DNA from: a virus
Length of the DNA stretch: 31,505 nucleotides
Strand: one strand, 5' to 3'
Virus record (IMG/VR): IMGVR_UViG_3300022562_000360
Coordinates: 1-31,505 of that record
In this document: piece after piece, positions 8,215-29,781 of the stretch
Numbering within the stretch: position 1 is the stretch's first letter
How the letters are laid out: every line of letters starts with the position of its first letter
Made by a program: the position numbers and the translations under genes
The notes under the pieces: generated by a model
The model's database searches: none
What the model was told of the DNA's origin: nothing
The model's input: only the letters and a program-made list of their open reading frames with translations

Positions 8215-9084
8215 ATGATCATTCTCGAGGGACCTGACTGCGGCGGCAAGTCCACCCTGGCAGAGCTGTGGCCACTTCCAGAATCTAACAAGATTCACTT
8301 CAGCCACCAGGAAGACAAGCTGACGGCGTACAAGAAGTTCCTCAGCGAGCACCGCGGCAGGGACATGCTCCTCGATCGCTTCCACATCTCCGAGCAGGTG
8401 TACGGCCCGATTCTGAGGAACAGCAACGAGCTGCTCTACACCGGGCGGTTCCTCGAGCGAGAACTGCTGGCTGATGCTTCTTGCGTGGTGCTTTGCCTGC
8501 CTCCCTGGCCAATTGTCAGGTACCAGTGGCAGAAGCGAATCGACTCAGAGATGGTGAAGGACGTCGAGGTTATGAGAGCCATCTACGAGGCGTATCACGA
8601 GATCGAGACTGACCTGAAGGTGTTCCTGTTCGATTACACCAAGGATCCTCTGCCGCGCCTGGTAGACAAGGTCAACCGGTTCATGCACTGCGACAACAAG
8701 ATGCCCCACGGCTTTTTTGGGAGTCCCTTCGCCACTGTTCTCCTGGTAGGCGACGAGGTCAGCTCCCAGGAGCAGCACGGAGTTCCTTTCACCCGAGACC
8801 GGGTGGGCTGCTCTACCTGGCTGGCTAAGCAGCTTCACGATGCAGGCATTTCCGAGGGACACCTTGCTTGGGTGAACTCCACTCCGGATCTGACGAAGAA
8901 GCAGGTCGATTTCATCCAGGACCGGTTCCCCAACAAGATCGCCCTGGGCGTCACGGCAGAGTACAAGCTCCGCCAGCTAGGCTTCTCCATGTTCGAGACC
9001 GTCCAGCACCCACAGTACTGGAAGCGCTTCCTCTCGAAGGAACCGTACCCCTTGATCGCTAAACTGAAGAGGATGATCGGATGA
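8215..9084 (+). CDS. thymidylate kinase-like dNMP kinase fused to a UDG-like domain
   Basis: 289 residues in two parts. The N-terminal part (1-155) is a P-loop nucleotide kinase: GPDCGGKST (6-14), the DR-x-S-VYG motif (LLDRFHISEQVYG, 52-64) as in thymidylate and phage dNMP kinases, and a helical lid region. The C-terminal part (about 170-289) is not kinase. It has VGDE (178-181), GVPF (189-192), a helix GCSTWLAKQLHDAGI, VN (220-221), IALG (242-245) and HPQYWKRF (265-272), the order of landmarks of the uracil-DNA-glycosylase superfamily, but the classical catalytic motif is not obvious. The kinase probably phosphorylates a dNMP, perhaps a modified one; the second domain's role is unknown. ATG 8215 has AAGGAG eight bases upstream. 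Confidence 0.8.
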   Translation: MIILEGPDCGGKSTLAELWPLPESNKIHFSHQEDKLTAYKKFLSEHRGRDMLLDRFHISEQVYGPILRNSNELLYTGRFLERELLADASCVVLCLPPWPIVRYQWQKRIDSEMVKDVEVMRAIYEAYHEIETDLKVFLFDYTKDPLPRLVDKVNRFMHCDNKMPHGFFGSPFATVLLVGDEVSSQEQHGVPFTRDRVGCSTWLAKQLHDAGISEGHLAWVNSTPDLTKKQVDFIQDRFPNKIALGVTAEYKLRQLGFSMFETVQHPQYWKRFLSKEPYPLIAKLKRMIG

Positions 9085-9899
9085 TGACGCCAGAGAGATT
9101 GGTCGAGCTGATGAACCTGGCTGCTGCGGTGGTGGCTGGCGTGAGAGTGAATCTCCACACCAGCTTCGACGCGCAGAAGGAATACCCGCACCTGGCGAAG
9201 ATCTGGGAAACTAATCACCTGCTGTTCAATGGCGAGCTAACTGCTTCTGGCCGCATGTACGTGGACATGGAGCCCACTCTGAGCTACGAGCTTTCCACTC
9301 TCGCCAAGCAGGCGCACAGCGACAAGATTCTCTCGTCACCAGAAGAGTACCAGCGACTTCGCCAGGGGCTTAGCTTGATTGCTAAGAACATGGCTTACTA
9401 CATCTACAAGGGCTTGTACATCGACGACAGAGTACCTGGCGTGGTGATCGACGTCGGTGGTGGAAGCGGCGAGTGGATGAAGCAGTTCTGCCGGTATCAC
9501 CCGCGCTTTTCTGGCGTGCTGATCGACAGTCGCCCAACGACGCCGACCACGCGCATCTACGATGTCTTCGCCAACAACCAGTGGGTTTTCGACTTCCCGA
9601 ACCCTGGCGTTATCCTGCTGAACGAGGTGCTGCACCTGCGAGGCAAGATCGACAGGGTCAGGCTGTTCAAGGAGTGCTACCAGAACCTCAGCCCAGGTGG
9701 GTGGCTGCTCATTGGAGAGCGAAAACCAACGCCAGAGTTTGCTTGGCGCATGGCTGCGGCCACCAGCCAGGGGGAAGCCCTGTATGTAGAGCAGCTGATT
9801 GATGAGATCGAGGCAGAGCCTACTGACTTCGTCATTCAGTCAGGCTGGTCGCATTATTTCCTGATGTATCTCAAACCAACGATGGAGAAGGCCCGATGA
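9081..9899 (+). CDS. SAM-dependent methyltransferase, O-methyltransferase-like
   Basis: A 272-residue class I methyltransferase. After a helical N-terminal region (1-115), which resembles the lid/dimerisation part of small-molecule O-methyltransferases, comes motif I VVIDVGGGSGEW (121-132), a conserved acidic residue after strand 2 (LIDS, 147-150), a motif-IV-like VILLNEVLHL (177-186), and NLSPGGWLLIGE (203-214). The motif IV is not the NPPY/DPPY of DNA base N-methylases, so a small molecule, nucleotide or side-chain oxygen is a better guess than a base nitrogen. It starts with an ATGA overlap with the kinase and ends with one to the TS-like gene, so it is embedded in the nucleotide operon. 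A link to base hypermodification is inference. Confidence 0.75.
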   Translation: MMTPERLVELMNLAAAVVAGVRVNLHTSFDAQKEYPHLAKIWETNHLLFNGELTASGRMYVDMEPTLSYELSTLAKQAHSDKILSSPEEYQRLRQGLSLIAKNMAYYIYKGLYIDDRVPGVVIDVGGGSGEWMKQFCRYHPRFSGVLIDSRPTTPTTRIYDVFANNQWVFDFPNPGVILLNEVLHLRGKIDRVRLFKECYQNLSPGGWLLIGERKPTPEFAWRMAAATSQGEALYVEQLIDEIEAEPTDFVIQSGWSHYFLMYLKPTMEKAR

Positions 9900-10609
9900 T
9901 CAAGTCCCATGATTTTGATTACCTGTATCACAGCCACCTCGAGCACTTGCTGTATGCTCCTGGCATGGAGCAGTTCAACTACAGCTTCGAGCTGGAGAGA
10001 ATCGACCCCACCAAGCTGCCAGTGGTCAAGTCGAAGGCCCGCAAGTTCAACCTCGAGTATGCCAAGGCTTTCGCTGACTTCACTGTCGGTGGCGGCCCTG
10101 TCCCTGAGGCAGTGCTGAAGCACCGACCCGACGCCAAGGATTTCATCGAGGAGGTCGAGGGCAGGAATCCGGCGTACGGCCCCAGGATCACAAAGCAGTT
10201 CTGGGGCGTGGTGAACGAGCTGCAGGCGATTCCAGAATCTCGCCGAGCAACGATCATGATCCTGGATGAGGAGGATCAGAAGATCAGGCAGTGGAAGCGA
10301 GCAAGGCCAGCATCGAAGGTGGAGTACCCCTGCACCATGGCGCTGACTTTCTTCATCCGCCAGAGGCGGTTGAACCTTCACGCCTCCATGCGGTCGTCCA
10401 ACGCCTGCACCACCATCTGCTATGACGTCTTCAACTTCGCTGTCCTGCTGTGCGAGATGTCAGACCAGCTTGGGGAGATGCCTGGCTCCTTGTTCTGGAA
10501 CGCGGTGAACTCTCACATCGTTCCGAGAGAGGTGCAGCTGGCGCACAGCATCATGGCTGAGTATCGAGAGCGCCGGGCAAGCAAGTCTGCAGGGAGCATC
10601 ACCCTGTGA
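9896..10609 (+). CDS. thymidylate synthase/dCMP hydroxymethylase family protein
   Basis: 237 residues of the thymidylate synthase fold. From residue 90 it aligns without gaps to E. coli ThyA, even in numbering: Tyr94-Gly95, the nucleophile Cys146 (YPCTMALTF), Arg166-Ser167 and His207. The paired Arg of PESRR is at 116-117. Asp177 stands where thymidylate synthase has Asn177; T4 dCMP hydroxymethylase also has Asp there, and this residue selects cytosine over uracil. I infer a dCMP substrate. However, ThyA Glu58, Trp80, Asp169 and Tyr209 appear to be replaced (Ala, Ala, Asn, Val), so the later chemistry may differ from both known enzymes. It lies between a methyltransferase and a MazG-like gene with ATGA/GTGA overlaps. 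Confidence 0.8.
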   Translation: MIKSHDFDYLYHSHLEHLLYAPGMEQFNYSFELERIDPTKLPVVKSKARKFNLEYAKAFADFTVGGGPVPEAVLKHRPDAKDFIEEVEGRNPAYGPRITKQFWGVVNELQAIPESRRATIMILDEEDQKIRQWKRARPASKVEYPCTMALTFFIRQRRLNLHASMRSSNACTTICYDVFNFAVLLCEMSDQLGEMPGSLFWNAVNSHIVPREVQLAHSIMAEYRERRASKSAGSITL

Positions 10610-10992
10610 GAACCCTGATTCGCGACATCGAGGAGTTCAATCGGAAGTTCGGCTTGCCGGTGAACAGCCGAGAGCTGTTTGCGCACGCCTCCTGGCTCGA
10701 CTATCGGATGAAGTTCCTGCTCGAAGAGCTGGCTGAAACGATGCAGGCCGTGGAGGACAAGGACCTTCACGAGGTGCTCGATGGCCTGGTCGACATCATG
10801 TACGTCGCCGTCGGAACAGCGGTGAGCCTGGGTCTGCCGATCGAGGAGGCGTGGAACCGAGTCCACAAGGCCAATCTTGAGAAGGTTCGCGTGGAGGCCC
10901 CTGAGCAGTCCAAGCGGAAAAGCTCCTTCGACTTGGTCAAACCTCCAGGCTGGAAGCGGCCTGTGTTCGACGATCTCCTGGGGGAACCATGA
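10606..10992 (+). CDS. MazG-like nucleotide pyrophosphohydrolase
   Basis: 128 residues of the all-alpha NTP pyrophosphatase superfamily (MazG/PRA-PH type). The metal-binding signature is EELAE (Glu40, Glu41, Glu44) followed by Glu56, Asp59 and Asp63 in HEVLDGLVDIMY, and then the WNRVHKANLEK segment (83-93) typical of the family. Such phage enzymes cleave dNTPs to dNMP and pyrophosphate; the T4 enzyme with this role, gp56, destroys dCTP and belongs to the same superfamily. In this operon it could supply dCMP to the TS-like enzyme and keep normal dCTP out of DNA. The start is GTG 10606, overlapping the previous stop as GTGA; the Lys/Pro-rich tail after about residue 100 is outside the domain. 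Confidence 0.85.
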   Translation: MRTLIRDIEEFNRKFGLPVNSRELFAHASWLDYRMKFLLEELAETMQAVEDKDLHEVLDGLVDIMYVAVGTAVSLGLPIEEAWNRVHKANLEKVRVEAPEQSKRKSSFDLVKPPGWKRPVFDDLLGEP

Positions 10993-11462
10993 GGCCCGAC
11001 CGCCACAGCTACTTCTTGGACATCGCTCACGTGGTGTCGAAGCGATCCACCTGCGTTCGAAGAGCGGTGGGCTGCGTGCTGGTGGATGTCAACGGGAACA
11101 TCTCCGCGACTGGCTACAACGGGGTGCCCCGAGGTCAGGCTCACTGCAACGAGGGAAACCCCTGCCCAGGATCTGAGGCGCCAGCTGGATCAGGTCTGGA
11201 CGAGTGCTACGCCATTCACGCCGAGCAGAATGCTCTGCTCCAGTGCCGGGATGTCAACAGTCTCCTTGCCATCTATTGCACCGCCAGCCCCTGCATCCAC
11301 TGCATGAAGATGCTGCTGAACACTTCAGCCAGGCTGGTGGTGTACCGAGAACCCTATGCCCACCAGGGGGCTCTGGAGCTGTGGGTGAGAAGCGGGAGAC
11401 AGTCTCTGCTCATCCCGCAGGGGATGTCTGTGACCACACTGAGAGGAGGAGTAAGCGCATGA
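10989..11462 (+). CDS. deoxycytidylate (dCMP) deaminase
   Basis: 157 residues of the zinc-dependent cytidine/dCMP deaminase family. Zinc ligands and catalytic Glu are clear: His77-Ala-Glu79 in IHAEQNALLQC and Cys102-x2-Cys105 in SPCIHCMKMLLN. The TGYNGVPRG segment (41-49) and the Cys-rich insert around 53-73 are typical of dCMP deaminases, where the insert holds a second zinc or allosteric site. It converts dCMP to dUMP and so feeds thymidine synthesis. T4 also carries this gene beside a dCMP-hydroxymethylase, so its presence does not exclude a modified-cytosine pathway. It overlaps the MazG gene as ATGA and the next gene the same way. Confidence 0.93.
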   Translation: MRPDRHSYFLDIAHVVSKRSTCVRRAVGCVLVDVNGNISATGYNGVPRGQAHCNEGNPCPGSEAPAGSGLDECYAIHAEQNALLQCRDVNSLLAIYCTASPCIHCMKMLLNTSARLVVYREPYAHQGALELWVRSGRQSLLIPQGMSVTTLRGGVSA

Positions 11463-12031
11463 CCTGCATTGTAGGCGTTTGTGATGGAAACACGGTTCAC
11501 TTTGGAGCAGACAGCGCCGGTGTCGATGGCTGGCATGCACTAATGATTCGCAGCGATTCAAAAGTGTTCATCATCGGCGAGTTCATTTTCGGGTTCACGA
11601 CATCTTTCCGAATGGGGCAGCTGCTGCGCTACCACTTCACCCCGCCCGAAATTCCTGAGAACGCCAACAATTTGATGGCTTACATGGTAACAGAGTTCTC
11701 GCGCCAGGTCAGAGCAGTATTCAATGCCGGCGGATTCGCCACAGTAAAGGACTCGGTTGAAACTGGTGGGGAGTTCCTGGTAGGTATTCGAGGCCGGCTT
11801 TTTCGGATATGCCAAGACTATCAAGTGGCAGAATCTGTTGAGGGGTTCGATGCGATCGGAAGCGGCGGGCACTTCGCGCTCGGTGCGTTGCACGCTACTG
11901 CAGGCAAACCCGCCCCTGCTCGCATCGAAGCTGCGCTAGAAGCAGCGCAGGCATTATGCTCGACCGTGCGCGGGCCGTTTCTTCATCTGTCGAAAGCTTA
12001 TGAGGTCCCCTCTGCCCACCCGCTGAAGTGA
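11459..12031 (+). CDS. Ntn-hydrolase, proteasome/HslV-like peptidase homologue
   Basis: 190 residues beginning Met-Thr-Cys-Ile-Val-Gly. If the Met is removed, Thr becomes the N-terminal nucleophile as in proteasome beta subunits and HslV. With that Thr as residue 1, Asp17 (GADSAG) is at the catalytic Asp position of the proteasome and Lys34 (SDSKVF) is one off the catalytic Lys. The FGFTTSFRMGQLL segment and EGFDAIGSGGHFALGAL (about 128-144) match the shape of the family's second half. ATG 11459 is chosen because AGGAGGAG lies just upstream and the reading frame before it has no support. It overlaps the deaminase stop as ATGA. Substrate and purpose in the phage are unknown. Confidence 0.8.
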   Translation: MTCIVGVCDGNTVHFGADSAGVDGWHALMIRSDSKVFIIGEFIFGFTTSFRMGQLLRYHFTPPEIPENANNLMAYMVTEFSRQVRAVFNAGGFATVKDSVETGGEFLVGIRGRLFRICQDYQVAESVEGFDAIGSGGHFALGALHATAGKPAPARIEAALEAAQALCSTVRGPFLHLSKAYEVPSAHPLK

Positions 12032-20176: not shown

Positions 20177-20679
20177 TTTCCCTCCTTAGCGATTTTCTCG
20201 ATCTGCTTCCGCAAGGTGTCAGCCAGTCGCTGCTGCATGGCATCGATCTGGGATTCGAAAGCCGGTTCCAGCCAGGGCTTCTTGGGATATGTAGACTTCC
20301 CGAACTCTGTCCACCTGCTATAAAACCCGTCGAGCGTGGGGCCGATCAGAACGACCACGGTGTTGCCGCTTCTCGACACCATTGCCTTCCTTCGAAGGCT
20401 GCTCTTCAAGAACCCAGGAGCACGGTAGCGCCCCTTCCAGCCTCTGACAGGGTACGGATCAACCATCCGCCTGGTGCCGTTGTCAGACCTGGTCTCTGAA
20501 TACTGGAAAGAACCCACTGGAGCAGCGGCTTGAACAGCTCGAAGGGCTGGCAGCGCAGCGGACATGGCAGAAGATCGAAGGATCTTTCCCCCGACAGCGC
20601 GACCCAGCTTCGAGAGCTTGGCGGAAAGCTCCGCTACTCCCTTCAGCTGGTCAGTTATCTGCGCGCCAGTGTCGATCAT
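20173..20679 (-). CDS. HK97 gp10-like head-tail joining protein
   Basis: 168 residues: QITDQLKGVAELSAKLSKLGRAVGGKILRSSAMSAALPALRAVQAAAPVGS at the start and FYSRWTEFGKSTYPKKPWLEPAFESQIDAMQQRLADTLRKQIEKIAKEG at the end, both typical of the HK97-gp10 family (family name known from similar sequences). These proteins act in joining the tail to the head, a neck/tail completion role. The start is ATG 20679, which overlaps the head closure stop as ATGA; the longer frame to 20715 is not supported. Confidence 0.85.
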   Translation of the reverse strand: MIDTGAQITDQLKGVAELSAKLSKLGRAVGGKILRSSAMSAALPALRAVQAAAPVGSFQYSETRSDNGTRRMVDPYPVRGWKGRYRAPGFLKSSLRRKAMVSRSGNTVVVLIGPTLDGFYSRWTEFGKSTYPKKPWLEPAFESQIDAMQQRLADTLRKQIEKIAKEGK

Positions 20680-21008
20680 TGCGTCTGCAGTTCCTCGATG
20701 CACATCAGGAGCCACTCCTTGCCGCGCTCCTCGACATTGATCACAGACCGGATGGAGAAGTACCGATCGCCATACTTCACCCGATCTCTCGGGCCCAAGG
20801 TGACGTCCTTCTTCGCTCGCATTCCGATCTCGTGAGTGATGTTCGCCTTCTCCCCGGAAGCAGTGAAGTACCGTTGTCCTCTGATCGGCTCAATCGACGC
20901 CCAGGCTGGTGCGATGTCTTCCCAGCTGTTGGTAACCTGTCCAACACCATCTTGGGTTGTCACCTGCCTCTGCAGCACGATCGACTTGGTCAGCTTCCAG
21001 GCTTTCAT
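20676..21008 (-). CDS. head closure (head-tail adaptor) protein
   Basis: 110 residues: KSIVLQRQVTTQDGVGQVTNSWEDIAPAWASIEPIRGQRYFTASGEKANITHEIGMRAKKDVTLGPRDRVKYGDRYFSIRSVINVEERGKEWLLMCIE. This is the head-tail adaptor/HCP family (SPP1 gp16, HK97 gp7 type), a small beta-barrel with the 'R...E....' pattern around residues 55-80. It seals the portal after packaging. It is separated from the connector gene (24645-24938) by six non-structural genes, although these two are normally adjacent. Confidence 0.88.
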   Translation of the reverse strand: MKAWKLTKSIVLQRQVTTQDGVGQVTNSWEDIAPAWASIEPIRGQRYFTASGEKANITHEIGMRAKKDVTLGPRDRVKYGDRYFSIRSVINVEERGKEWLLMCIEELQTQ

Positions 21009-21739
21009 AGTGCCTCAAACAGGTGGGCTATTGGCTCTCCCGCCTCGATTTCCTCGTGATGCCACTGGGTCCACGCCAGCCAGTGAGCCCAGCTCTCTCG
21101 GCTATCAGCATCGACCCCGTATGCCATGGCGCCCTCGTCGTGAACCTCGGTCGGTCGACCCTCGATCAGACATTGAACGCCAAATGACGAGTTGAGGACA
21201 TAGAAGGCCGAGTCTTCCATGGTCCGCTTCTCGGGCAACCCTGTGGGATTGTGCCCCGCCGGGTGTGGCCTGAAGTGGGTAGGGGCGAGTTTATTCCCGA
21301 GAACGTAGGCATACCAGTCCTCAATGGTTCTCCAGTGGGGGCTGTATGGTTCCGTCTGGCCACACAGGACCACGCTGGAGAAGTTTAGCTGTTGAGGCCA
21401 CAGTTCGATCCCCATCGCCTGCCAGCGGGCGTCGTCGGACCACGGGGGGACCCTGTGGTCACCTCGTCGGCCGTGCCCATTCCACACGAGAGAAACCCAC
21501 TGGTTGGTGTCCCCGACCGAGCACCTGTCGACCAGGAGGTACTCCCCCGTGGCCTCGATGCCGCGCCACAGCGATGTGCCGAGCAGGATCGGGAACCCCT
21601 CATCTAACCGAGCTGGGTGGGAGGTCAGAAGCGATGAGATGCCGAGAGACTTAAGCCCCATAGACATCTTGGCAGCAAATGGCAAGTGCCAGCCAATATC
21701 GGAAGAGCAGTGGATTACCGCCAGTGGTCTTGAACCCAT
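21005..21739 (-). CDS. GT-B-like protein resembling KpsC/KpsS-type transferases
   Basis: 244 residues. The C-terminal half has the landmark order of capsule Kdo-transferase-like GT-B proteins: FRPHP (about 157-161), VLNSSFGVQCLIEGRPTEV (about 181-199), DEGAMAY and then WAHWLAWTQWHHEEIEAGEPIAHL near the end. The N-terminal half (AVIHCSSDIGWHLPFAAKMSMGLKSLGI) is also like the first domain of a glycosyltransferase, and the middle WNGHGRRG stretch is distinctive. I infer a transferase using a nucleotide-activated sugar; donor and acceptor are unknown. It is the last gene of the six-gene cassette and ends with an ATGA overlap with the head closure gene. Confidence 0.55.
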   Translation of the reverse strand: MGSRPLAVIHCSSDIGWHLPFAAKMSMGLKSLGISSLLTSHPARLDEGFPILLGTSLWRGIEATGEYLLVDRCSVGDTNQWVSLVWNGHGRRGDHRVPPWSDDARWQAMGIELWPQQLNFSSVVLCGQTEPYSPHWRTIEDWYAYVLGNKLAPTHFRPHPAGHNPTGLPEKRTMEDSAFYVLNSSFGVQCLIEGRPTEVHDEGAMAYGVDADSRESWAHWLAWTQWHHEEIEAGEPIAHLFEAL

Positions 21740-22347
21740 GAGTCTTTCACCTGATGTGGTTTTGGCTCGCCGTGGAACACGCAGATCGCACCACGGTCCT
21801 TTCCCTCGAGAACGTGGTACTTGTACGAGGTGATCAGATCAGCTGGAAGCAGACCGATCCTGTGAGGCCAGAGGAGGTGGGACAGCACGTTCTGATCGCC
21901 ATGCATGGTGGTCAGCATGCTCTCGTCTAAGCCACTTAGATCTACGGTGTCATAGAAGATCATCACCGAGCTGTTGCAGCAGCCGTCGCCACCCAGGTAG
22001 CGCTTGAACTGCTCGTCAAGTCCCTTCTTGGGGTTCACGATCGAGTAGCTGAAATCGTCCCGCATCCACAGCCGGCCAGGATCGAGAAAAGCAGCTCTGA
22101 CCACGGCGTCGATGTTGCGGGTGATGACCACGTCCAGGTCGAGGTACATGGTCCAGCCCCTGAATGACTTCTGCACCAGGTCAAGCTTTGCCCACCAGCC
22201 CTCTCGCTCGGGCAAGTCCTGCTCAGTGAGACAGATGAACTTGTGCGGAATGGTGAGATTGCGGTCAACCATGTTCCGAAGCCGGCTCACGTACAGCTCG
22301 CCCTGCTTCAGGTAGTTACGGTGATTGAGGCAGACGACGTTCAGCAT
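21715..22347 (-). CDS. GT-A glycosyltransferase, family 8-like
   Basis: 210 residues. The strand-loop MYLDLDVVITRNID (67-80) carries the metal-binding DxD (Asp70, Asp72) of GT-A enzymes, preceded by GWWAKLDLVQKSF, as in GT8-type transferases. Later NSSVMIFYDTVDLSGLDES and GDQNVLSHLL (about 150-159) match the acceptor-side and Gln-Asn motifs of that group, and VFHGEPKPHQV (about 190-200) resembles the HxxG/KPW end motif. It should transfer a sugar from a nucleotide sugar. It starts two bases after the preceding stop and overlaps the GT-B-like gene by 25 bases. Confidence 0.75.
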   Translation of the reverse strand: MLNVVCLNHRNYLKQGELYVSRLRNMVDRNLTIPHKFICLTEQDLPEREGWWAKLDLVQKSFRGWTMYLDLDVVITRNIDAVVRAAFLDPGRLWMRDDFSYSIVNPKKGLDEQFKRYLGGDGCCNSSVMIFYDTVDLSGLDESMLTTMHGDQNVLSHLLWPHRIGLLPADLITSYKYHVLEGKDRGAICVFHGEPKPHQVKDSWVQDHWR

Positions 22348-22349
22348 GA

Positions 22350-22901
22350 TCAGCGTCTGTTGAAGTGAATGGCAGCGGTGGGCATGTCAAACTCGTAGGA
22401 AGCGACCCTCCGCAGGCGGGCGAACCACATTCTCCGCGGGGCTTCCCCGTGCAGGTACAGCCGCTCGACGATGAATCCATTCTTCTCTGCCAGCTCGACG
22501 TAGAACTCCCTCGAGGGATACCACTCGCCATGCCAGGTCCAGTCACCGAACATGGGCGTGGTGCTCACCAGCACTGAGCCAGTGTGGCAGGCATTCACCA
22601 TGTTCTCCCACACTTCCTTCTGCCCGTTCACGTGCTCAGAAGTCCCGATGTTGGAAACCATGTCGAAGGTGCCCAGATCAAGAGGCTTCCGCAGGTCTAG
22701 CTTCAGCGCTCCGTCCTCGCCATTCCAGTCGACTGAGATGTGAGAGTATCCCAGTGAGGTGAAGAACTTCTTGTACGTGTGCGTCCCGTTCTTCTTGTTG
22801 CCAAGCTCCAGCATGGTCGTACCAATCAGAGGCTGGTACAGGTCCCACTCGCCAGAGCGATTGTGGAAAGGTCCTAGATCTCCCAAAAGGCTAGCTTGCA
22901 T
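22350..22901 (-). CDS. class I SAM-dependent methyltransferase-like protein
   Basis: 183 residues. Motif I is altered: LIGTTMLELGNKKNG (about 25-39) instead of a glycine-rich loop. It is followed by HISVDWNGEDGALKLDLRKPLDLGTFDMVSNIGTSEHVNG (about 53-92), which has the motif II acidic residue, the motif III Asp-Leu and the IGTSEHV motif IV of small class I methyltransferases. The C-terminal part (GFIVERLYLHGEAPRRMWF) fits the last strand. SAM binding is probable but not certain because of the loop. It overlaps the next methyltransferase-like gene by 28 bases. Confidence 0.6.
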   Translation of the reverse strand: MQASLLGDLGPFHNRSGEWDLYQPLIGTTMLELGNKKNGTHTYKKFFTSLGYSHISVDWNGEDGALKLDLRKPLDLGTFDMVSNIGTSEHVNGQKEVWENMVNACHTGSVLVSTTPMFGDWTWHGEWYPSREFYVELAEKNGFIVERLYLHGEAPRRMWFARLRRVASYEFDMPTAAIHFNRR

Positions 22902-23389
22902 CCTAGTGCTCCACCATCATCGATCGCTTCCTTATATGGTCCAAGGTACTTTCGAAGGTCAAGCCGAGCGAATTCCCGGTGATCCCTCTCCTCGTTCGCG
23001 TCGAACTGCGTGGCAATCAGATACCACGCACTTCGGCGAAACAAGTCCAGTGCCATTCCGATGCGGGTGTCATCGAGATGGTTCAAGGTGTGCCTGCACA
23101 GAATCGCGCAGGCCTGCGGCATTGCCTGGGTCGTGATGTCGAGCTTGGTTACTGACGGATCTCGGGGAATCAGGTCGAAAGCGTTGTACTGGATCTCCTT
23201 CTTCCACTGAATCTTCCTTATCCACACCAGGTCGCCAGCACCTGCGTCGTTCAAGCTGGTGATGTCGTGGCGCTTCACGAGGTGAGGGAGCCACTCCCTT
23301 ACCTTGGAAGTGTTCTCGAGAGTGGAGCCGATGCCACAGACTGTGAAAGGCTTGCCACCTCTCCAGCCGTTCTTCATCCGCTCCATCAT
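22874..23389 (-). CDS. methyltransferase-like protein (putative class I)
   Basis: About 171 residues. TSLNDAGAGDLVWIRKI gives a DAGAGD loop like motif I (DxGxGx), then YNAFDLIPRDPSVTKLDITTQ gives motif II/III with an Asp-x-x-x-Asp arrangement, and CAILCRHTLNHLDD the motif IV position. The last part, WYLIATQFDANEERDH, may be motif V/VI. The start is taken at 23389 because TGAGGAAGAG lies directly before it; ATG 23407 is an alternative without a Shine-Dalgarno. With 22350-22901 it forms a pair of adjacent, divergent methyltransferase-like genes in the cassette. Substrate unknown. Confidence 0.6.
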   Translation of the reverse strand: MMERMKNGWRGGKPFTVCGIGSTLENTSKVREWLPHLVKRHDITSLNDAGAGDLVWIRKIQWKKEIQYNAFDLIPRDPSVTKLDITTQAMPQACAILCRHTLNHLDDTRIGMALDLFRRSAWYLIATQFDANEERDHREFARLDLRKYLGPYKEAIDDGGALGCKLAFWEI

Positions 23390-23396
23390 CTCTTCC

Positions 23397-24032
23397 TCAG
23401 AGAGCATCGATTGGGACGTATCCAAGGACCGGCTCCAGAGCACTCCCGGGAGTGCAGTTGATCAGCTCGACTAGACCTTGCTGCTGCACCAGATCGTACA
23501 GCTTCACGAGGTGATGGTGCACCCCGTCCTTTACCGCCACGCTCGGCCAGTGCTGCAGCTCCTTGGGGTACTCTCCTGTCGGGAGCAGCAGGGTCGAGTG
23601 GCGTGGCGTGGATCCTGGGTAGCGGGCCCTGCCGTTATAGTCTGTCGAGTAGTGCAAGTCGTAACCTAAAAGCACAATCCGACTAGCACCCTTCTTGTGG
23701 GCCATGCTGACCAGGGAGAATCCACTGCCGTGGCCGTGGTGGATGACGTTCGACTCCTCGCACAGGCCTAAGCCATCCCGCTCTGCGATCCAGTTCAAGC
23801 GATAGGTATTGGCCGCTTCTGCATTGGTAGTCCACTTCTCGAATGGCAGCTTGCTGACTTCTGCCCAATAGGTTTCCCACCAGTTCAGGTTGCAGGCGTA
23901 CAGCAGTTCCAGGTCAGGAGCTACCCGGTAGACGTTGTTGCAACCGAAGAGCCTGAAGCCCTTATTCCTAGCTGACTGGATCTGTTCCAGTGAGAGCGAG
24001 GGCCCGGTCGCTATGCAAGCGATGGTGCTCAA
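23397..24032 (-). CDS. GPSL-motif (MptE/DUF115-like) Rossmann protein, copy 2
   Basis: 211 residues. It begins MSTIACIATGPSLS, a strand followed by the GPSLS loop found in the MptE-like (DUF115) group and in some sialyltransferase-like proteins. Later SNVIHHGHGSGFSLVSMAHKKGASRIVLLGYDLH (about 94-127) and VELINCTPGSAL (about 187-198) match the conserved positions of the same group. In phages such proteins are common in structural regions but their activity has not been settled; a nucleotide-binding transferase is the usual guess. It is about the same length as its neighbour 23968-24648 and shares the same landmarks, so the two are tandem paralogues. The start is TTG with GAGGAGG directly upstream. 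Confidence 0.7.
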   Translation of the reverse strand: MSTIACIATGPSLSLEQIQSARNKGFRLFGCNNVYRVAPDLELLYACNLNWWETYWAEVSKLPFEKWTTNAEAANTYRLNWIAERDGLGLCEESNVIHHGHGSGFSLVSMAHKKGASRIVLLGYDLHYSTDYNGRARYPGSTPRHSTLLLPTGEYPKELQHWPSVAVKDGVHHHLVKLYDLVQQQGLVELINCTPGSALEPVLGYVPIDAL

Positions 24033-24648
24033 GCGCCTCCTCGAATGTCATGACTGGCCAGCAAGTAAGCAGCGAGCCAGGAGTGGCATTAATGATCTGG
24101 ATGTGAGGGGACAGCAACTGAGCCGCCCGATTGAAGTGCTTTAGGAAAGCCTCGTAGTTGCTGCGATTCTCAAGCGGTGCAGGGTGATCTCCGAAGAAGT
24201 GCACCTTTCCACCTACGGGCTGCATGTCGAATCCAACCAGGATGATCTGAGTGCAGCCAAGCAGGATAGCCATGTTGACTGCCTGAAATCCGGAATTGTC
24301 CCCGTAGTGAATCAGCGAGGGATTGGTGCTGAAACCGATCCGAGCATCGCCCGACACCAGGTGCAGCCCGTACTCCTCCGCCAGCTTCAGCTTGTTGTTG
24401 TCCCCCTCGTCGTGAGTAGACCAGCGCTCCCCCTTGAACTGCGGGACTCCCTTGTGGTACTTCCACCAGGTATCATTGCAGCCGTAAAGGACATCAGCAT
24501 CAGGGAGCAGCTTGTAGGAATCCTGGACCGCCAGCACTGGCCAGTCACTAGTCTTGACCAGATCAACTACCTTTGACAGGGAGGGACCAGGAGCCGCTAC
24601 GATGCACTTAGCCCACCTGAAGGACAGGGTTTCTAAGTGCGGGGTCAT
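23968..24648 (-). CDS. GPSL-motif (MptE/DUF115-like) Rossmann protein, copy 1
   Basis: 226 residues, paralogue of the next gene. Shared landmarks: IVAAPGPSLSKVV (16-28), DADVLYGCNDTWW (50-62), NPSLIHYGDNSGFQAVNMAILLGCTQIILVGFDMQ (about 109-143), HFFGDHP (about 149-155) and IQIINATPGSLL (about 183-194). The Trp-Trp, Gly-Phe-Asp-Met-Gln and FFGDHP features are the same as in phage proteins of this family from other hosts, which I know only as unassigned. It starts with an ATGA overlap to the connector gene, so it was added directly behind the structural gene. Its last 65 bases overlap the TTG start of copy 2. Confidence 0.75.
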   Translation of the reverse strand: MTPHLETLSFRWAKCIVAAPGPSLSKVVDLVKTSDWPVLAVQDSYKLLPDADVLYGCNDTWWKYHKGVPQFKGERWSTHDEGDNNKLKLAEEYGLHLVSGDARIGFSTNPSLIHYGDNSGFQAVNMAILLGCTQIILVGFDMQPVGGKVHFFGDHPAPLENRSNYEAFLKHFNRAAQLLSPHIQIINATPGSLLTCWPVMTFEEALEHHRLHSDRALALTGTDPVS

Positions 24649-24938
24649 GCAAGCGCTGGGTCTCGGTGCCGCATCAGCAGACTTCTCACCGCCTCCGAGA
24701 AGGGGTCCTGGTCTGCTCGGTCGTACATGTTCTCCGCTACGAGAAGGATCGCGGCCTCGATGTCGGCAGGCAGCGTGAGCGGACTTCCAGTCTTGAGCCC
24801 ATCTTCGTTAACCGCCTTGCAGTAGCTCACCACCGCAGCGATCGCGGCCCCACCGATCCGCTCGACTCTCACGTCGTCGGTGCTGTCGTCGACCCGGAGG
24901 TGATCCTTAAAGGTAGCGAGCGGTATCAGCACTGCCAT
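24645..24938 (-). CDS. head-tail connector protein (gp6/gp15-like)
   Basis: 97 residues: AVLIPLATFKDHLRVDDSTDDVRVERIGGAAIAAVVSYC… and LPADIEAAILLVAENMYDRADQDPFSEAVRSLLMRHRDPALA. This is the small all-helical connector family (HK97 gp6, SPP1 gp15) that forms the ring between portal and head closure protein; the 'L..HLRVD...DD' start and the 'AILLLVA..Y..R' helix are diagnostic. ATG 24938 has AGAGGG close upstream, and that Shine-Dalgarno is the last unit of the 10-bp repeat array (24941-25060). Confidence 0.9.
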   Translation of the reverse strand: MAVLIPLATFKDHLRVDDSTDDVRVERIGGAAIAAVVSYCKAVNEDGLKTGSPLTLPADIEAAILLVAENMYDRADQDPFSEAVRSLLMRHRDPALA

Positions 24939-25067: not shown

Positions 25068-25107
25068 ATGGCAGGAAGCAGACCCAGTGGCTACCATTTC
25101 CTGCCAT
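25068..25107 (-). terminator. hairpin at the end of the collagen gene
   Basis: ATGGCAGGAA (25068-25077) pairs perfectly with TTCCTGCCAT (25098-25107) and encloses the stop codon of the collagen-like gene (25093-25091). There is no U-run, so it may stabilise the mRNA 3' end or slow transcription rather than end it. Downstream genes of the operon are still needed. Confidence 0.4.
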
Positions 25108-26080
25108 CAGGTCCCATTTGCGTCAGGTCTCTGCCATTTCGTCCTGCTGCACCTGCAGGGCCAGCCTTGCCCCGCTCGCCGTCCTTACCGTCTCGACCCT
25201 TCTTCACACTCAACCGCCACTGATCAGTGGAACCTGGAAGCACGCTGCTGCTTGCGTCCATGTCCTGCTGAGCAATCCAGAACGAGCCACCGTAGGTGAC
25301 CCCGTCTCCCTTCTGGTAGGATCTGGATGCCTTGAACACCCCGCAGTCGAGCACTGAGGGAACCGAAAACTCGGCTTCCTTGGTGAAGCCACTCGACATG
25401 GTGACGATCATGCTGAAATTGCGGTCAGTCAGCTGCTTGAATTCGATTGACTGGAGGCCATCCACCAGGCACTCCCAGCCATCAAGGCCGCTGGTTTTCC
25501 GGATCGACCGCCACAGCCCACCGTTGTGAGAGGCGAACGTCCCTCGAGGGTAGCTCTTCTCTGGGTCGATCGCCGACAGGACGTCAATAGACAGAGCGTC
25601 CTTCCCGTCTAACCCATCCCTGCCATCGCGACCATCCCGGCCTGTTTCTCCCTTCTCGCCAGGAGGACCCTGCTCTCCTTGCTTGCCGGTAGCACCTGCA
25701 ACGCCTGCAACACCTGCAACACCAGGTTCGCCTTTCTCGCCGCGGTCCCCTTTCTCGCCGCGGTCCCCTTTCTCGCCAGGAATACCTTGCTGGCCAGGTG
25801 GGCCCTGCTCACCAGGAATACCTTGCTGGCCGGGTTCTCCCTTTTCACCAGGTTCGCCAGCAGCACCAGCAGGACCGACAGGACCTTCAGGTCCAGGGAC
25901 ACCCTGCTCACCAGGTGCTCCCTTCTCACCAGGAATACCTTGCTGGCCAGGTGGACCGCAAGGAACTTCAGCAAATCTCTGGTCCAGCCGGAGTTCCAGC
26001 TGCGAGATCGCGCTTCCTACGTATCCCTTGACAGCTTCGATGACCTGGTCAGCGAGCAGCTTAAGCGTTTGCGACTTCAT
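25091..26080 (-). CDS. collagen-like fibre protein with carbohydrate-binding-like domain
   Basis: 329 residues. Residues 1-41 form a helical/coiled-coil N-terminus. From Gly42 to about 161 there are 40 uninterrupted Gly-X-Y triplets, rich in GPPGQQ, GEK and GDR, which should make a stable triple helix. Residues about 165-290 are a beta-rich domain; the part around [28 protein letters not shown] and STDQWRL resembles small chitin/cellulose-binding modules (CBM5/12 type). A second run of eight Gly-X-Y triplets ends the protein. It lies between portal and connector genes, where phages place head fibres or decoration proteins. It may bind host surface glycans or particles. ATG 26080 overlaps the portal end by 20 bases. 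Confidence 0.85.
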
Positions 26081-27792: not shown

Positions 27793-29214
27793 TCAGACCG
27801 TGTACTTGATGCCCGTGAGATACTGAGCTGCCGCAGACCGGCGCTTCGCCCAGTGGATGTACCGCTCGGCGCGGATCGCGATCGAGTTCGTCTGGAACAT
27901 GCTGACCACCGCGCTTTCCACGCTGGTCTGCGGCGAACCCGAACCTGCCGAGTACATCGACGGAGCCGTGTCCATCTCGAGGGATGCCTCACGGCTGATG
28001 TCGATCGACACGCCACCGTCATCCGCAAGCCAGACGTCCGAGGCGTTCACCAGGATCAGGATATCCCGGGCAATCGTCGGCGAACCAGCTGCCACGTCGG
28101 GGACGTGCTCCGACACGATCACTGGCAAGCCGATGAATCGGCCACCCGTCATCGAGATTTCGGGGAACTCTTGCTGACCGAGCGCGTTCCGCATCAGCGA
28201 AAGCGTCAGAGCCAGAGTCGCAGGCATGATCCACACGCCGGTGCTGAGGGAGATGTTGGCGCTGATGAAGTTCGTCATCAGAGCTTTCACGTCCGTCCGC
28301 ACTGCGTCTGCGTCGGTGCCTCCCGTCGAGGAAACCGGCGAAGCGGTGTTCGTGATCGACGCCGGCGAAACGCCCGACACAGCCGCCTTCGTCGGGGAAA
28401 CGAAGTCGATGTCCATGCGCTCGATCAGCGCCGCTGCGAGCGAATCCCGCACCAGAGCTTCTGCCGACGGGTTCGAGAAGCGGAGCAGCTCTTCCGTGAT
28501 CACCGCGATGTTCGCCACCTTGGTGTACGGGAACGTGGTCCGCTCGTAGCCGAACTTCGTCAGCGGCTTGGCAGCGCCTTCACCGACCCAGTAGCCCGAC
28601 CCGCCGACCGTTTGGCCAGGAATCGTGACGTTGAATGGCACCGACCGCAGGGCAGGAATCCCGTTCTGGCCGAACTTGCCGACGATCGTCGCTGGGCGGA
28701 GGTACTCCACGAAATCGCCGACGAACTGGTTGTCCGCCTGCGCCAGGGGAGCTGCCCACGTGACATGCTGGGCGGTGCCTGCGGCGACCTGCGCCTTGAT
28801 GTAGTTCTGGATCCGGTGCTCTTCCGGATACACGTTCTTGGCGATCTCGTGCGCCTGCATCAGGTTCCCCTTCGCAGCCGCCAGACACATGGCGTAGCGA
28901 GCGAACTCGATGCCAGGCGGGAGGTTGCGGCGAACCGTGATCGGGGCAGCGGTCGGAACCACTCGGCCATTGCCGTCTTCCGCGCGAGCGATGACTGGCG
29001 TGGCCTTCGTGGCTTGGAACCGCTCGAGGCTGCGAAGTCGCACCAGGTGGGCATCCACCTCCTTGACTTCGGATTCGAGGGTATCGTACTCCTCGGTTTC
29101 CTCTGCGTCCAGGGTCCTGCCCTCTTCTGCCGCTTTGGCCATGAGGGCTTCCATTCGCTCCGAGGAAGCCAGGCGCTTCGCTTCGAAAGCTGCAATCTGA
29201 TCTGCGATCTTCAT
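27793..29214 (-). CDS. possible internally initiated major capsid protein, 473 aa
   Basis: Within the fusion gene, Met190 is encoded by ATG at 29214-29212. CGGAG (from about 29225 to 29221) lies six bases before it, a good Shine-Dalgarno. Translation here would give MKIADQIAAFEAKRL…, the usual start of an HK97 scaffold-capsid protein (delta domain coiled coil, then capsid fold), without the protease. Known HK97-type phages need many capsids per protease, so such an internal start would solve the ratio problem. Whether it is used cannot be seen from sequence. Confidence 0.5.
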   Translation of the reverse strand: MKIADQIAAFEAKRLASSERMEALMAKAAEEGRTLDAEETEEYDTLESEVKEVDAHLVRLRSLERFQATKATPVIARAEDGNGRVVPTAAPITVRRNLPPGIEFARYAMCLAAAKGNLMQAHEIAKNVYPEEHRIQNYIKAQVAAGTAQHVTWAAPLAQADNQFVGDFVEYLRPATIVGKFGQNGIPALRSVPFNVTIPGQTVGGSGYWVGEGAAKPLTKFGYERTTFPYTKVANIAVITEELLRFSNPSAEALVRDSLAAALIERMDIDFVSPTKAAVSGVSPASITNTASPVSSTGGTDADAVRTDVKALMTNFISANISLSTGVWIMPATLALTLSLMRNALGQQEFPEISMTGGRFIGLPVIVSEHVPDVAAGSPTIARDILILVNASDVWLADDGGVSIDISREASLEMDTAPSMYSAGSGSPQTSVESAVVSMFQTNSIAIRAERYIHWAKRRSAAAQYLTGIKYTV

Positions 29215-29781
29215 GTCTTTCTCCGTAACTTTGGGTTTGATTGCCGAAGCGCCGGCTAGGTGAACGACTCGCTTGCGCACCAGACCAGACGCGGCCAGCG
29301 CTTGCTCGTCGAAGTTCTTGATGGATTGGATCGTTGCCTCCGCATTCGCGGGGATGGTGACTGCTGACAGCTCGTGCCAGGCCCACTTCAGAAAGTGGAT
29401 GCCACCTTTCGAATTCTCGATGAAGTTGTACTCGAGGGCTTGAAACCCGATCGACAGGCCTTTCACCAGGCCAGACTTCAGGCTCTGCCAAGCTTCGTCG
29501 AGCCTGTCCTTCAGCTTGCCAGGTTCGTCGATCTTCACCAGCCTGGCTTTCACCTCGATGCCCTCGCTGGTGACCTTTGCAGAGTACACCTCGCCGATGG
29601 GTTCTGCCGATCGATGCTGCCACAGCAGCGGAATCGGCAGCTTGAACTGGGCGCCCTTCGGCTCTACCACGTCCCCCATGCGATCGGTGGTCGGGGTGGT
29701 GGCAATCCCGGTGAGTTCCCGCTTGTCGGCATCGAAAGACTTGACTGACAGGATGCTGTAGGCACGCTGAATCTTTTTCAT
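27793..29781 (-). CDS. prohead protease-major capsid fusion protein
   Basis: 662 residues joining two normally separate HK97-type proteins. The N-terminal 165 residues are the prohead protease: LLWQHRSAEPIGEV (His56), GLVKGLSIGFQALE (Ser110) and AWHELSAVTIPANAEA (Glu137), the expected triad. After a linker comes a scaffold-like coiled coil (about 190-265, EAKRLASSERMEALMAKAAEEGRTLDAEE…), then the HK97-fold capsid (about 290-662; LRPATIVGKFGQNGIPALRSVPFNVTIPG, KLVANIAVITEELLRFS-like segment, RSAAAQYLTGIKYTV end). The protease may cut itself and the scaffold out after assembly. ATG 29781 has AGGAGG upstream. An internal start at ATG 29214 (next entry) could make capsid without protease. Confidence 0.9.
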   Translation of the reverse strand: MKKIQRAYSILSVKSFDADKRELTGIATTPTTDRMGDVVEPKGAQFKLPIPLLWQHRSAEPIGEVYSAKVTSEGIEVKARLVKIDEPGKLKDRLDEAWQSLKSGLVKGLSIGFQALEYNFIENSKGGIHFLKWAWHELSAVTIPANAEATIQSIKNFDEQALAASGLVRKRVVHLAGASAIKPKVTEKDMKIADQIAAFEAKRLASSERMEALMAKAAEEGRTLDAEETEEYDTLESEVKEVDAHLVRLRSLERFQATKATPVIARAEDGNGRVVPTAAPITVRRNLPPGIEFARYAMCLAAAKGNLMQAHEIAKNVYPEEHRIQNYIKAQVAAGTAQHVTWAAPLAQADNQFVGDFVEYLRPATIVGKFGQNGIPALRSVPFNVTIPGQTVGGSGYWVGEGAAKPLTKFGYERTTFPYTKVANIAVITEELLRFSNPSAEALVRDSLAAALIERMDIDFVSPTKAAVSGVSPASITNTASPVSSTGGTDADAVRTDVKALMTNFISANISLSTGVWIMPATLALTLSLMRNALGQQEFPEISMTGGRFIGLPVIVSEHVPDVAAGSPTIARDILILVNASDVWLADDGGVSIDISREASLEMDTAPSMYSAGSGSPQTSVESAVVSMFQTNSIAIRAERYIHWAKRRSAAAQYLTGIKYTV

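What the first reader, a model, noticed from the sequence alone, without database searches (positions are those of the whole stretch)
21005..24648. Six-gene glycosyltransferase/methyltransferase cassette inside the head-tail operon
Connector (24645-24938) and head closure (20676-21008) genes, normally neighbours, are split by six leftward genes: two GPSL-motif MptE-like paralogues, two methyltransferase-like proteins, a GT-A enzyme with DLD motif and a KpsC/KpsS-like GT-B protein. All are joined by overlaps to the structural genes, so they are expressed late, when virions are built. A late, virion-linked decoration pathway is the simplest reading: glycans, perhaps methylated, on the collagen-like fibre, tail tip or capsid. 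A second reading is completion of a modified base made by the early genes. I know of no characterised system with this combination.
Basis: partly seen in the sequence, partly recalled or inferred. Interest (0 to 1): 0.72.

Follow-up and report, generated by a model that had tools for sequence, protein, structure and literature searches.

The report
Phage virion-glycosylation gene island
This bacterial virus carries a conserved block of sugar-attaching and methylating enzymes among its head-and-neck genes, probably to decorate its own particle with a glycan; the same core enzymes occur in many other phages, including the laboratory phage P1, where they have no known function.

Summary
The six genes are there, at the stated places, between the head-tail connector and head-closure genes. 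They are not a one-off. The same block, with two MptE-like paralogues first and a GT8-like plus a KpsC-like enzyme last, lies inside the capsid-connector module of 39 other non-redundant metagenomic phage contigs. All its gene families are under purifying selection. The middle of the block is swappable: the two methyltransferases are replaced or joined by GT8, GT25, nucleotide-sugar epimerase, acyltransferase, FkbM methyltransferase or 2OG-oxygenase genes, the pattern of a variable glycan locus. The paralogues fold like Maf (flagellin glycosyltransferase) and CstI/II sialyltransferases. Homologues of g1, g2 and g5 form P1 pmgO-pmgP-pmgQ, which are dispensable. A g3 homologue sits beside the orthologue of Che8 gp110, a proven capsid glycosyltransferase. 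The modified-base genes are not found in cassette-bearing relatives and the collagen-like fibre in few, which argues against the DNA and collagen readings. Best reading: cytoplasmic, late glycosylation of a virion protein, capsid or neck first. Acceptor and sugar are unproven. New variant of a known kind (phage-encoded virion glycosylation).

The parts
23968..24648 (-). g1: MptE/DUF115-like glycosyltransferase paralogue 1 (P1 PmgO-like; Maf/GT42 fold)
   Evidence: PF01973 E 1.6e-7; phrog_4603 E 3e-36; AlphaFold model pLDDT 85.9 matches Maf 5mu5 Z 15.4, CstI/CstII Z 12; family profile to P1 PmgO E 1e-48
23397..24032 (-). g2: MptE/DUF115-like glycosyltransferase paralogue 2; overlaps g1 by 65 nt
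   Evidence: phrog_4603 E 6e-23; 32% identical to g1 over about 143 residues, E 5e-18; shares the invariant residues of alignment A2
22874..23407 (-). g3: class I SAM methyltransferase-like (listed ORF starts at GTG 23443; the conserved start is ATG 23407)
   Evidence: phrog_3382 methyltransferase E 6e-18; homologue prophiGD91-2 gp76 E 1e-23; alignment A6
22350..22901 (-). g4: methyltransferase-like protein without database hit; 57-62% identical in relatives
   Evidence: alignment A5, 72% mean column identity; class I-like pattern by inspection; no Pfam or PHROG match and no credible PDB match
21715..22347 (-). g5: GT8-like GT-A glycosyltransferase with invariant D-L-D (P1 PmgQ-like)
   Evidence: phrog_1962 glycosyltransferase E 3e-12; wide profile to Gat1 E 5e-5, glycogenin E 2e-3; P1 PmgQ E 2e-19
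21005..21739 (-). g6: putative GT-B glycosyltransferase, KpsC/WbbB-like (R-x-H-P and S-S-...-G patterns)
   Evidence: alignment A10; best profile matches KpsC E 0.12, WbbB E 0.17, not significant; own model poor, pLDDT 53
24645..24938 (-). Ad1 head-tail connector, upstream flank
   Evidence: PF05135 E 7e-7, phrog_40 E 1e-9
20676..21008 (-). Hc1 head closure protein, downstream flank
   Evidence: PF05521 E 4e-25, phrog_25 E 3e-20
27793..29781 (-). protease-fused major capsid protein, possible acceptor
   Evidence: phrog_617 E 5e-170; the capsid gene is the usual 5' neighbour of the cassette in relatives

Best explanation
A conserved late-operon island that builds a short, strain-variable glycan on a virion protein inside the infected cell. 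Proposed steps: (1) g1 and g2, single-domain relatives of the catalytic core of Maf and of GT42 sialyltransferases, transfer a first sugar from a nucleotide sugar (by fold, most likely a CMP-sugar supplied by the host) onto an amino-acid side chain of an assembling head or neck protein [fold shown; protein acceptor and CMP donor inferred]. (2) g5, a GT8-like GT-A enzyme, and g6, a KpsC-like GT-B enzyme, extend it [family shown for g5, weak for g6; order inferred]. (3) g3 and g4 methylate the sugar(s) [inferred]; in relatives other tailoring enzymes do this job instead. The glycan is not needed for plaque formation in the laboratory, by analogy with P1 pmgO/P/Q. It probably alters what binds the particle: host surface, debris, antibodies [inferred].
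For: Same island in 39 non-redundant IMG/VR contigs, always in the capsid-connector module. Three-prime flank: Ad1 in 30, Hc1 in 2, neck gene in 3. Five-prime flank where visible: capsid gene in 20, Ad1 in 2. Two g1/g2 copies in 17 of 18 contigs with both flanks visible; g5 and g6 adjacent or one gene apart in 34 of 34. Purifying selection, dN/dS 0.04-0.26 in every family. Variable middle made of sugar and tailoring enzymes: GT8 (E 6e-15), NAD epimerase (E 2e-38), hexapeptide acyltransferase (E 6e-23), GT25 (E 2e-12), FkbM and type-24 methyltransferases, radical SAM, weak 2OG-oxygenase. g1 model nearest to Maf, a protein O-glycosyltransferase, then CstI/CstII; family profile to CstII E 2e-4. 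Core trio also in P1 (pmgO, pmgP, pmgQ), Cronobacter JK004 and XacN1; a two-paralogue version with GT and methyltransferase genes in phage S20 between capsid and Hc1. The g3 homologue in prophiGD91-2 lies in a GT/methyltransferase cluster with a 48%-identical orthologue of Che8 gp110, which is required for capsid glycosylation (PMC12363180). P1 pmgO, pmgP, pmgQ are non-essential by CRISPRi and deletion (PMC10695390; PMC9024508). No long hydrophobic stretch in any of the six, against a membrane-anchored O-antigen modifier.
Against: No chemistry: no glycan has been seen on any phage carrying these genes, as far as the searches here show. Position in the late operon shows timing, not target. g4 and g6 have no significant family match. 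No sugar-nucleotide synthesis genes are in the window, so the donor must come from the host. Giant Caulobacter and Brevundimonas phages and XacN1 keep their versions beside tail or fibre-like genes, not the capsid, so the acceptor may differ between phages. Capsid and tail-tube C-termini of cassette phages show no obvious tail extension (inspection only).
Confidence: 0.66

Rival explanations
1. The cassette completes a hypermodified DNA base started by the early genes (TS-like, thymidylate-kinase-like, methyltransferase, dCMP deaminase at 8215-11462).
For: The window does have a TS-like, kinase-like, methyltransferase and MazG/dCMP-deaminase cluster, and phage glycosyltransferases can glycosylate DNA bases (Pyle 2024, cited in PMC12619734).
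Against: Neither the TS-like nor the kinase-like protein has a match in ten cassette or cassette-like records, among them complete S20 and D3 and contigs of 38 and 44 kb. The window's modification genes are early and rightward; the cassette is in the late leftward operon. The search had no positive control among those records, and several are fragments.
Confidence: 0.08
2. The enzymes modify the host surface (O-antigen, capsule or LPS core) to exclude superinfecting phages or to stop progeny sticking to debris.
For: g6 resembles KpsC/WbbB Kdo transferases, and one variant carries GT25, a family of LPS enzymes; D3 is a serotype-converting phage (my knowledge).
Against: No long hydrophobic segment in the six proteins, whereas known phage serotype converters of the Gtr type are membrane-bound (my knowledge). 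The island is fixed inside the capsid-connector genes in all 39 contigs rather than in the usual moron positions. Late expression leaves little time to remodel the surface.
Confidence: 0.15
3. The cassette glycosylates the collagen-like protein encoded at 25091-26080, as collagen is glycosylated elsewhere.
For: The gene lies just upstream of Ad1 in the same operon, and L011 has both.
Against: Of ten cassette or cassette-like records only L011 and EBPR siphovirus 3 have a homologue; no long G-x-y run was found in the L014-L019 loci nor in the whole 38 and 44 kb records.
Confidence: 0.06
4. g1 and g2 are not glycosyltransferases but MptE-like pyrophosphokinases, or have lost catalysis and serve as scaffold or morphogenesis proteins (as the P1 name 'putative morphogenetic' suggests).
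For: MptE (8sd5) has the same fold at Z 11.8; PAJU2 and Eowyn records call the homologue a structural protein.
Against: Maf and CstI/CstII score as high or higher (Z 15.4 and 12.2); constant company of glycosyltransferases, epimerases and methyltransferases; P1 pmgO and pmgP knockouts plate normally.
Confidence: 0.05

Closest known systems
Phage P1 pmgO-pmgP-ppp-pmgQ
   Same: Homologues of g1/g2 (PmgO E 1e-48, PmgP E 9e-15) and of g5 (PmgQ E 2e-19), same order, with overlapping pmgO/pmgP genes as in the window
   Different: No methyltransferases or g6 found; interrupted by a protein phosphatase gene; not beside capsid or connector genes; function never assigned; dispensable
Mycobacteriophage virion glycosylation (Che8, Corndog, Myrna)
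   Same: Phage-encoded glycosyltransferases, and in prophiGD91-2 methyltransferases, clustered together; capsid and tail tube shown to be glycosylated; a g3 homologue is in such a cluster
   Different: The glycosyltransferases are of other families: Che8 gp108-110 do not match g1, g2, g5 or g6; actinobacterial hosts; cluster beside the terminase or at the genome end, not in the connector module
Maf flagellin glycosyltransferases
   Same: Same catalytic-core fold (5mu5, Z 15.4 over 189 residues); Maf acts in the cytoplasm on protein (PMC4065374) with a CMP-sugar donor (my knowledge)
   Different: Phage proteins are the core domain alone, 211-226 residues against 632; no flagellar genes nearby
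GT42 sialyltransferases CstI/CstII
   Same: Fold (Z 12), GPSL and SG...LG...I-x-L-x-G-x-D motifs
   Different: CstII's Tyr156/Tyr162 pair (my knowledge) is not conserved in the family alignment; so the public label 'alpha-2,3-sialyltransferase' is too specific
Pseudomonas phages D3 and PAJU2, Tetraselmis viridis virus S20
   Same: g1-like gene with methyltransferase and other genes in the same connector module; S20 has a nearly full-size block ending at Hc1
   Different: D3 and PAJU2 have one g1-like gene and an unrelated partner gene instead of g5/g6; no functional study found

Membership tests
Maf (MAF_flag10) protein glycosyltransferases | central Maf catalytic-core fold | tested here: met
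   g1 model, mean pLDDT 85.9; 5mu5 first at Z 15.4, rmsd 3.9, 189 aligned
Maf (MAF_flag10) protein glycosyltransferases | additional N- and C-terminal domains around the core | tested here: not met
   g1 226 and g2 211 residues; the match covers only residues 258-520 of the 632-residue chain
Maf (MAF_flag10) protein glycosyltransferases | transfers a nonulosonic acid to Ser/Thr of a protein | not testable with these tools
   needs enzymology
GT42 sialyltransferases | fold and nucleotide-binding GPSL and SGxxxxxxAxxLGxxxIxLxGxD motifs | tested here: met
   CstII profile match E 2e-4; CstI/CstII Z 12.2; G21, S119, G139, D141 conserved
GT42 sialyltransferases | catalytic Tyr pair and general-base His of CstII | tested here: inconclusive
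   Tyr156/162 not conserved in the alignment; an invariant His150 lies near the expected place but was not superposed on His188
GT8 glycosyltransferases (g5) | GT-A DxD and sequence relation to GT8 | tested here: met
   D70-L71-D72 conserved in the close family; wide profile to Gat1 E 5e-5, glycogenin E 2e-3
GT8 glycosyltransferases (g5) | Pfam PF01501 gathering score | tested here: not met
   window g5 no hit; 2 of 32 family members weak, best E 0.009
KpsC/KpsS/WbbB Kdo transferases (g6) | significant sequence or fold similarity | tested here: inconclusive
   KpsC E 0.12, WbbB E 0.17 as the top matches; own model pLDDT 53, not searched; no Pfam Capsule_synth hit
Phage-encoded virion glycosylation (mycobacteriophage type) | cluster of phage glycosyl- and methyltransferases near virion genes | tested here: met
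   window and 39 contigs; prophiGD91-2 gp73-80
Phage-encoded virion glycosylation (mycobacteriophage type) | homology of the glycosyltransferases to Che8 gp108-110 | tested here: not met
   best E 0.37 (g1/g2 profile to gp108) with filters off; only g3 has a mycobacteriophage homologue
Phage-encoded virion glycosylation (mycobacteriophage type) | glycan demonstrated on capsid or tail tube | not testable with these tools
   needs mass spectrometry
DNA-base glycosyltransferase systems | co-occurrence of the cassette with the base-modifying genes | tested here: not met
   TS-like and kinase-like proteins without match in ten cassette or cassette-like records; no positive control, some fragments

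The most novel reading that the evidence does not exclude
Many unrelated tailed phages of Gram-negative hosts, P1 among them, glycosylate their own particles in the cytoplasm with a Maf-like protein glycosyltransferase fed by a host CMP-sugar such as CMP-Kdo or a CMP-nonulosonate, and vary the glycan by swapping tailoring genes in a hot spot inside the head-connector operon, much as bacteria vary O-antigens.
Probability: 0.35. Interest if true: 0.8.

Novelty: new variant of a known kind. Interest (0 to 1): 0.62.

Why it matters
In what could be searched here, virion glycosylation by phage enzymes has been shown in mycobacteriophages, where it shields particles from antibodies. This island suggests the same trait, built from different enzymes, in other phages including P. 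aeruginosa phages and the laboratory phage P1. It turns the long-unassigned P1 genes pmgO, pmgP and pmgQ into a testable hypothesis with existing knockouts, and it bears on phage therapy (immune recognition), adsorption and phage evolution. It also warns that the automatic label 'alpha-2,3-sialyltransferase' on this family in public phage records is over-specific.

Tried and rejected
Collagen-fibre target: tested by co-occurrence, not supported. Modified-base completion: tested by co-occurrence, not supported. Search for C-terminal acceptor tails on capsid and tail-tube proteins by eye: nothing clear. First alignment A1 was too diverse to search with. Single-protein scans found few relatives (1 to 9 each); family alignments gave 16, 80 and 29 loci. 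g4 against bacterial genomes found nothing; g5 against bacterial genomes found only distant relatives without the rest of the cassette, apart from weak g1/g2, g4 or epimerase matches. The g6 structure model was too poor to search with. HIV-protease rows for g4 and PtxB for g5 are chance. Foldseek hits of g1 to CO dehydrogenase and TIM barrels are background. The two key papers (Freeman 2023; Pyle 2024) are not held and are cited only through other papers. No paper linking pmgO-like genes to virion glycans was found, but the library is partial.
Full report
What was checked. The six leftward ORFs at 21005-24648 are present and sit between Ad1 (24645-24938) and Hc1 (20676-21008), both confirmed by Pfam and PHROGs. 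Six of seven junctions overlap; g4/g5 has a 2-nt gap. The conserved start of g3 is the ATG at 23407, not the GTG at 23443, judged from the relatives' start M-L-[ST]-[ED]. GC and third-position GC of the six match the neighbouring structural genes, so there is no sign of recent import. The window is a 31.5 kb linear IMG/VR record with a typical siphophage late operon: terminase, protease-fused capsid, portal, collagen-like protein, Ad1, cassette, Hc1, neck, tail genes. Phage PAJU2 has the same order of terminase, fused capsid, portal, one further gene, Ad1, Hc1, with Ad1 and Hc1 adjacent; this supports the statement that the window's pair is split.

The enzymes. g1 and g2 are paralogues (32% identical over about 143 residues, E 5e-18) of the MptE-like/DUF115 superfamily. 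A model of g1 (mean pLDDT 85.9) is closest to the Maf flagellin glycosyltransferase 5mu5 (Z 15.4), then CstI and CstII sialyltransferases (Z 12.2), MptE (Z 11.8) and animal sialyltransferases (Z 8-9). The family profile finds CstII by sequence (E 2e-4) with the G-P-S-L and S-G...L-G...I-x-L-x-G-x-D motifs aligned. CstII's tyrosine pair is not conserved, so 'sialyltransferase' is not a safe label. g5 is GT8-like: its wide profile finds Gat1 (E 5e-5), glycogenin (E 2e-3) and, weakly, LgtC (E 0.28), with a conserved D-L-D. g3 is a class I methyltransferase (phrog_3382, E 6e-18). g4 has no credible match anywhere but is 57-62% identical to the window protein in relatives, with a class I-like pattern. 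g6 carries the R-x-H-P and S-S-...-G pattern of KpsC-like GT-B enzymes; KpsC and WbbB take 7 of the 8 rows but at E 0.12-0.43. I treat its family as suggested, not shown.

The island is conserved. Scans with g4, g5 and g6 family alignments, added to the earlier loci, gave 39 non-redundant contigs. In 18 of them both flanks are visible: 17 have two g1/g2 copies. Over all 39, the last cassette gene is followed by Ad1 in 30, Hc1 in 2, the neck gene in 3; the first is preceded by the capsid gene in 20 and Ad1 in 2; the remainder run off a contig end. g5 and g6 are adjacent or one gene apart in 34 of 34. Two contigs (L172, L062) are split, one g1/g2 gene before Ad1 and the rest after Hc1; D3 shows a similar split. 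The contigs were found through cassette genes, so they cannot say how common the island is. Six loci found through Hc1 instead (some of them near-identical) carry none of g1-g6, so it is accessory. Pairwise dN/dS is 0.04-0.26 in all five families: the proteins are maintained.

The middle is variable. Between g2 and g6, relatives carry, in place of or beside g3 and g4: a GT8 (E 6e-15) and an NAD-dependent epimerase (E 2e-38) in L018; a hexapeptide acyltransferase (E 6e-23) in L007; a GT25 (E 2e-12) in L063; FkbM (E 2e-9) and type-24 (E 1e-17) methyltransferases; a radical SAM protein (E 4e-20) and a weak sulfotransferase match (E 0.008) in L050; and a weak 2OG-Fe(II) oxygenase match (E 2e-5) in L014 with homologues in four other contigs. 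Nucleotide-sugar, acyl- and methyl-tailoring genes exchanging around a fixed glycosyltransferase core are what glycan loci look like. This is the strongest argument that the product is a glycan.

Wider relatives. The core trio is in phage P1: pmgO (E 1e-48), pmgP (E 9e-15) and pmgQ (E 2e-19, to g5). Cronobacter phage JK004 and Xanthomonas phage XacN1 have the same trio. Tetraselmis viridis virus S20 has two g1-like genes, a methyltransferase, a g5 homologue (E 2e-61) and other genes between capsid and Hc1. D3-like Pseudomonas phages have a g1-like gene between capsid and Ad1; PAJU2 has one after Hc1 with a methyltransferase; Klebsiella jumbo phage Eowyn has the PAJU2-type trio. Giant Caulobacter and Brevundimonas phages carry theirs beside tail and lysis genes. 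In P1, pmgO, pmgP and pmgQ are non-essential by CRISPRi and by deletion (PMC10695390); the deletion study reports no plaquing defect for 24 of 29 knockouts, the five exceptions not including these (PMC9024508).

Link to proven virion glycosylation. The g3 homologue gp76 of mycobacteriophage prophiGD91-2 (E 1e-23) lies in a cluster of four glycosyltransferases and two methyltransferases next to the terminase gene. gp80 of that cluster is 48% identical to Che8 gp110, one of the glycosyltransferases essential for capsid glycosylation (PMC12363180). The glycans are reported on the C-termini of capsid and tail-tube subunits (PMC12619734). The other cassette enzymes are not related to Che8 gp108-110. 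So it works like that system, on the evidence of composition, but is not the same enzyme set.

Rivals. The TS-like and kinase-like modified-base proteins have no match in the cassette-bearing records, and the collagen-like protein has one only in L011 and EBPR siphovirus 3; the records without either include the complete phage S20 and contigs of 38 and 44 kb, so neither is a needed partner. That negative rests on searches without a positive control for the base-modification proteins, and some records are fragments. Host-surface modification is not excluded; it is less likely because the proteins have no long hydrophobic stretch and the island is fixed in the capsid-connector genes.

Mechanism. 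Shown: gene content, order, conservation, fold of g1, families of g3 and g5. Inferred: that g1/g2 put the first sugar on a protein, that the donor is a host CMP-sugar, that g5 and g6 extend it and g3 and g4 methylate it, and that the acceptor is a head or neck protein. The usual neighbour of the island is the major capsid gene, which makes it the first candidate, but position is weak evidence. The verdict is a new variant of a known kind, with a direct test available in P1.

Noticed in passing
window 8215-11462 (+): Early cluster of a thymidylate-kinase-like protein (phrog_761), a methyltransferase (PF13489), a partial thymidylate-synthase-like protein, a MazG-like protein and a dCMP deaminase: looks like a thymidine hypermodification pathway.
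   Followed up: partly
window 25091-26080 (-): Collagen-like protein between portal and Ad1; its C-terminal part (residues 154-301) matches the end of portal-family PHROGs (phrog_1289, phrog_2271), so this domain appears fused to portals in other phages; also a weak CBM5/12 match. EBPR siphovirus 3 gp5 shares the domain.
   Followed up: partly
L010 (EBPR siphovirus 3) 596-1534: A g5-like glycosyltransferase directly upstream of the portal gene, in the nearest named relative by DNA; no other cassette gene found in that 13.6 kb record.
   Followed up: no
window 23968-24032; L037 8153-8255: The two paralogues g1 and g2 overlap by 65-100 nt in the window, in most relatives and in P1 (pmgO/pmgP); a conserved overlap suggests translational coupling and perhaps a heterodimer.
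   Followed up: no
L014 8186-8773 and L015 8679-9257: A 2OG-Fe(II) oxygenase-like protein between g5 and g6 in five contigs; together with GT8-like g5, whose nearest solved relative acts on the Skp1 glycan, it raises the possibility of hydroxylation before glycosylation.
   Followed up: no
L065-L132: Many metagenomic phage contigs carry distant g5 relatives, often with g6-like genes nearby but mostly without g1/g2 or connector genes: a related glycosyltransferase pair in another setting.
   Followed up: partly
window 11204-12031 (+): HslV-family peptidase-like protein (phrog_1040, E 2e-23).
   Followed up: no
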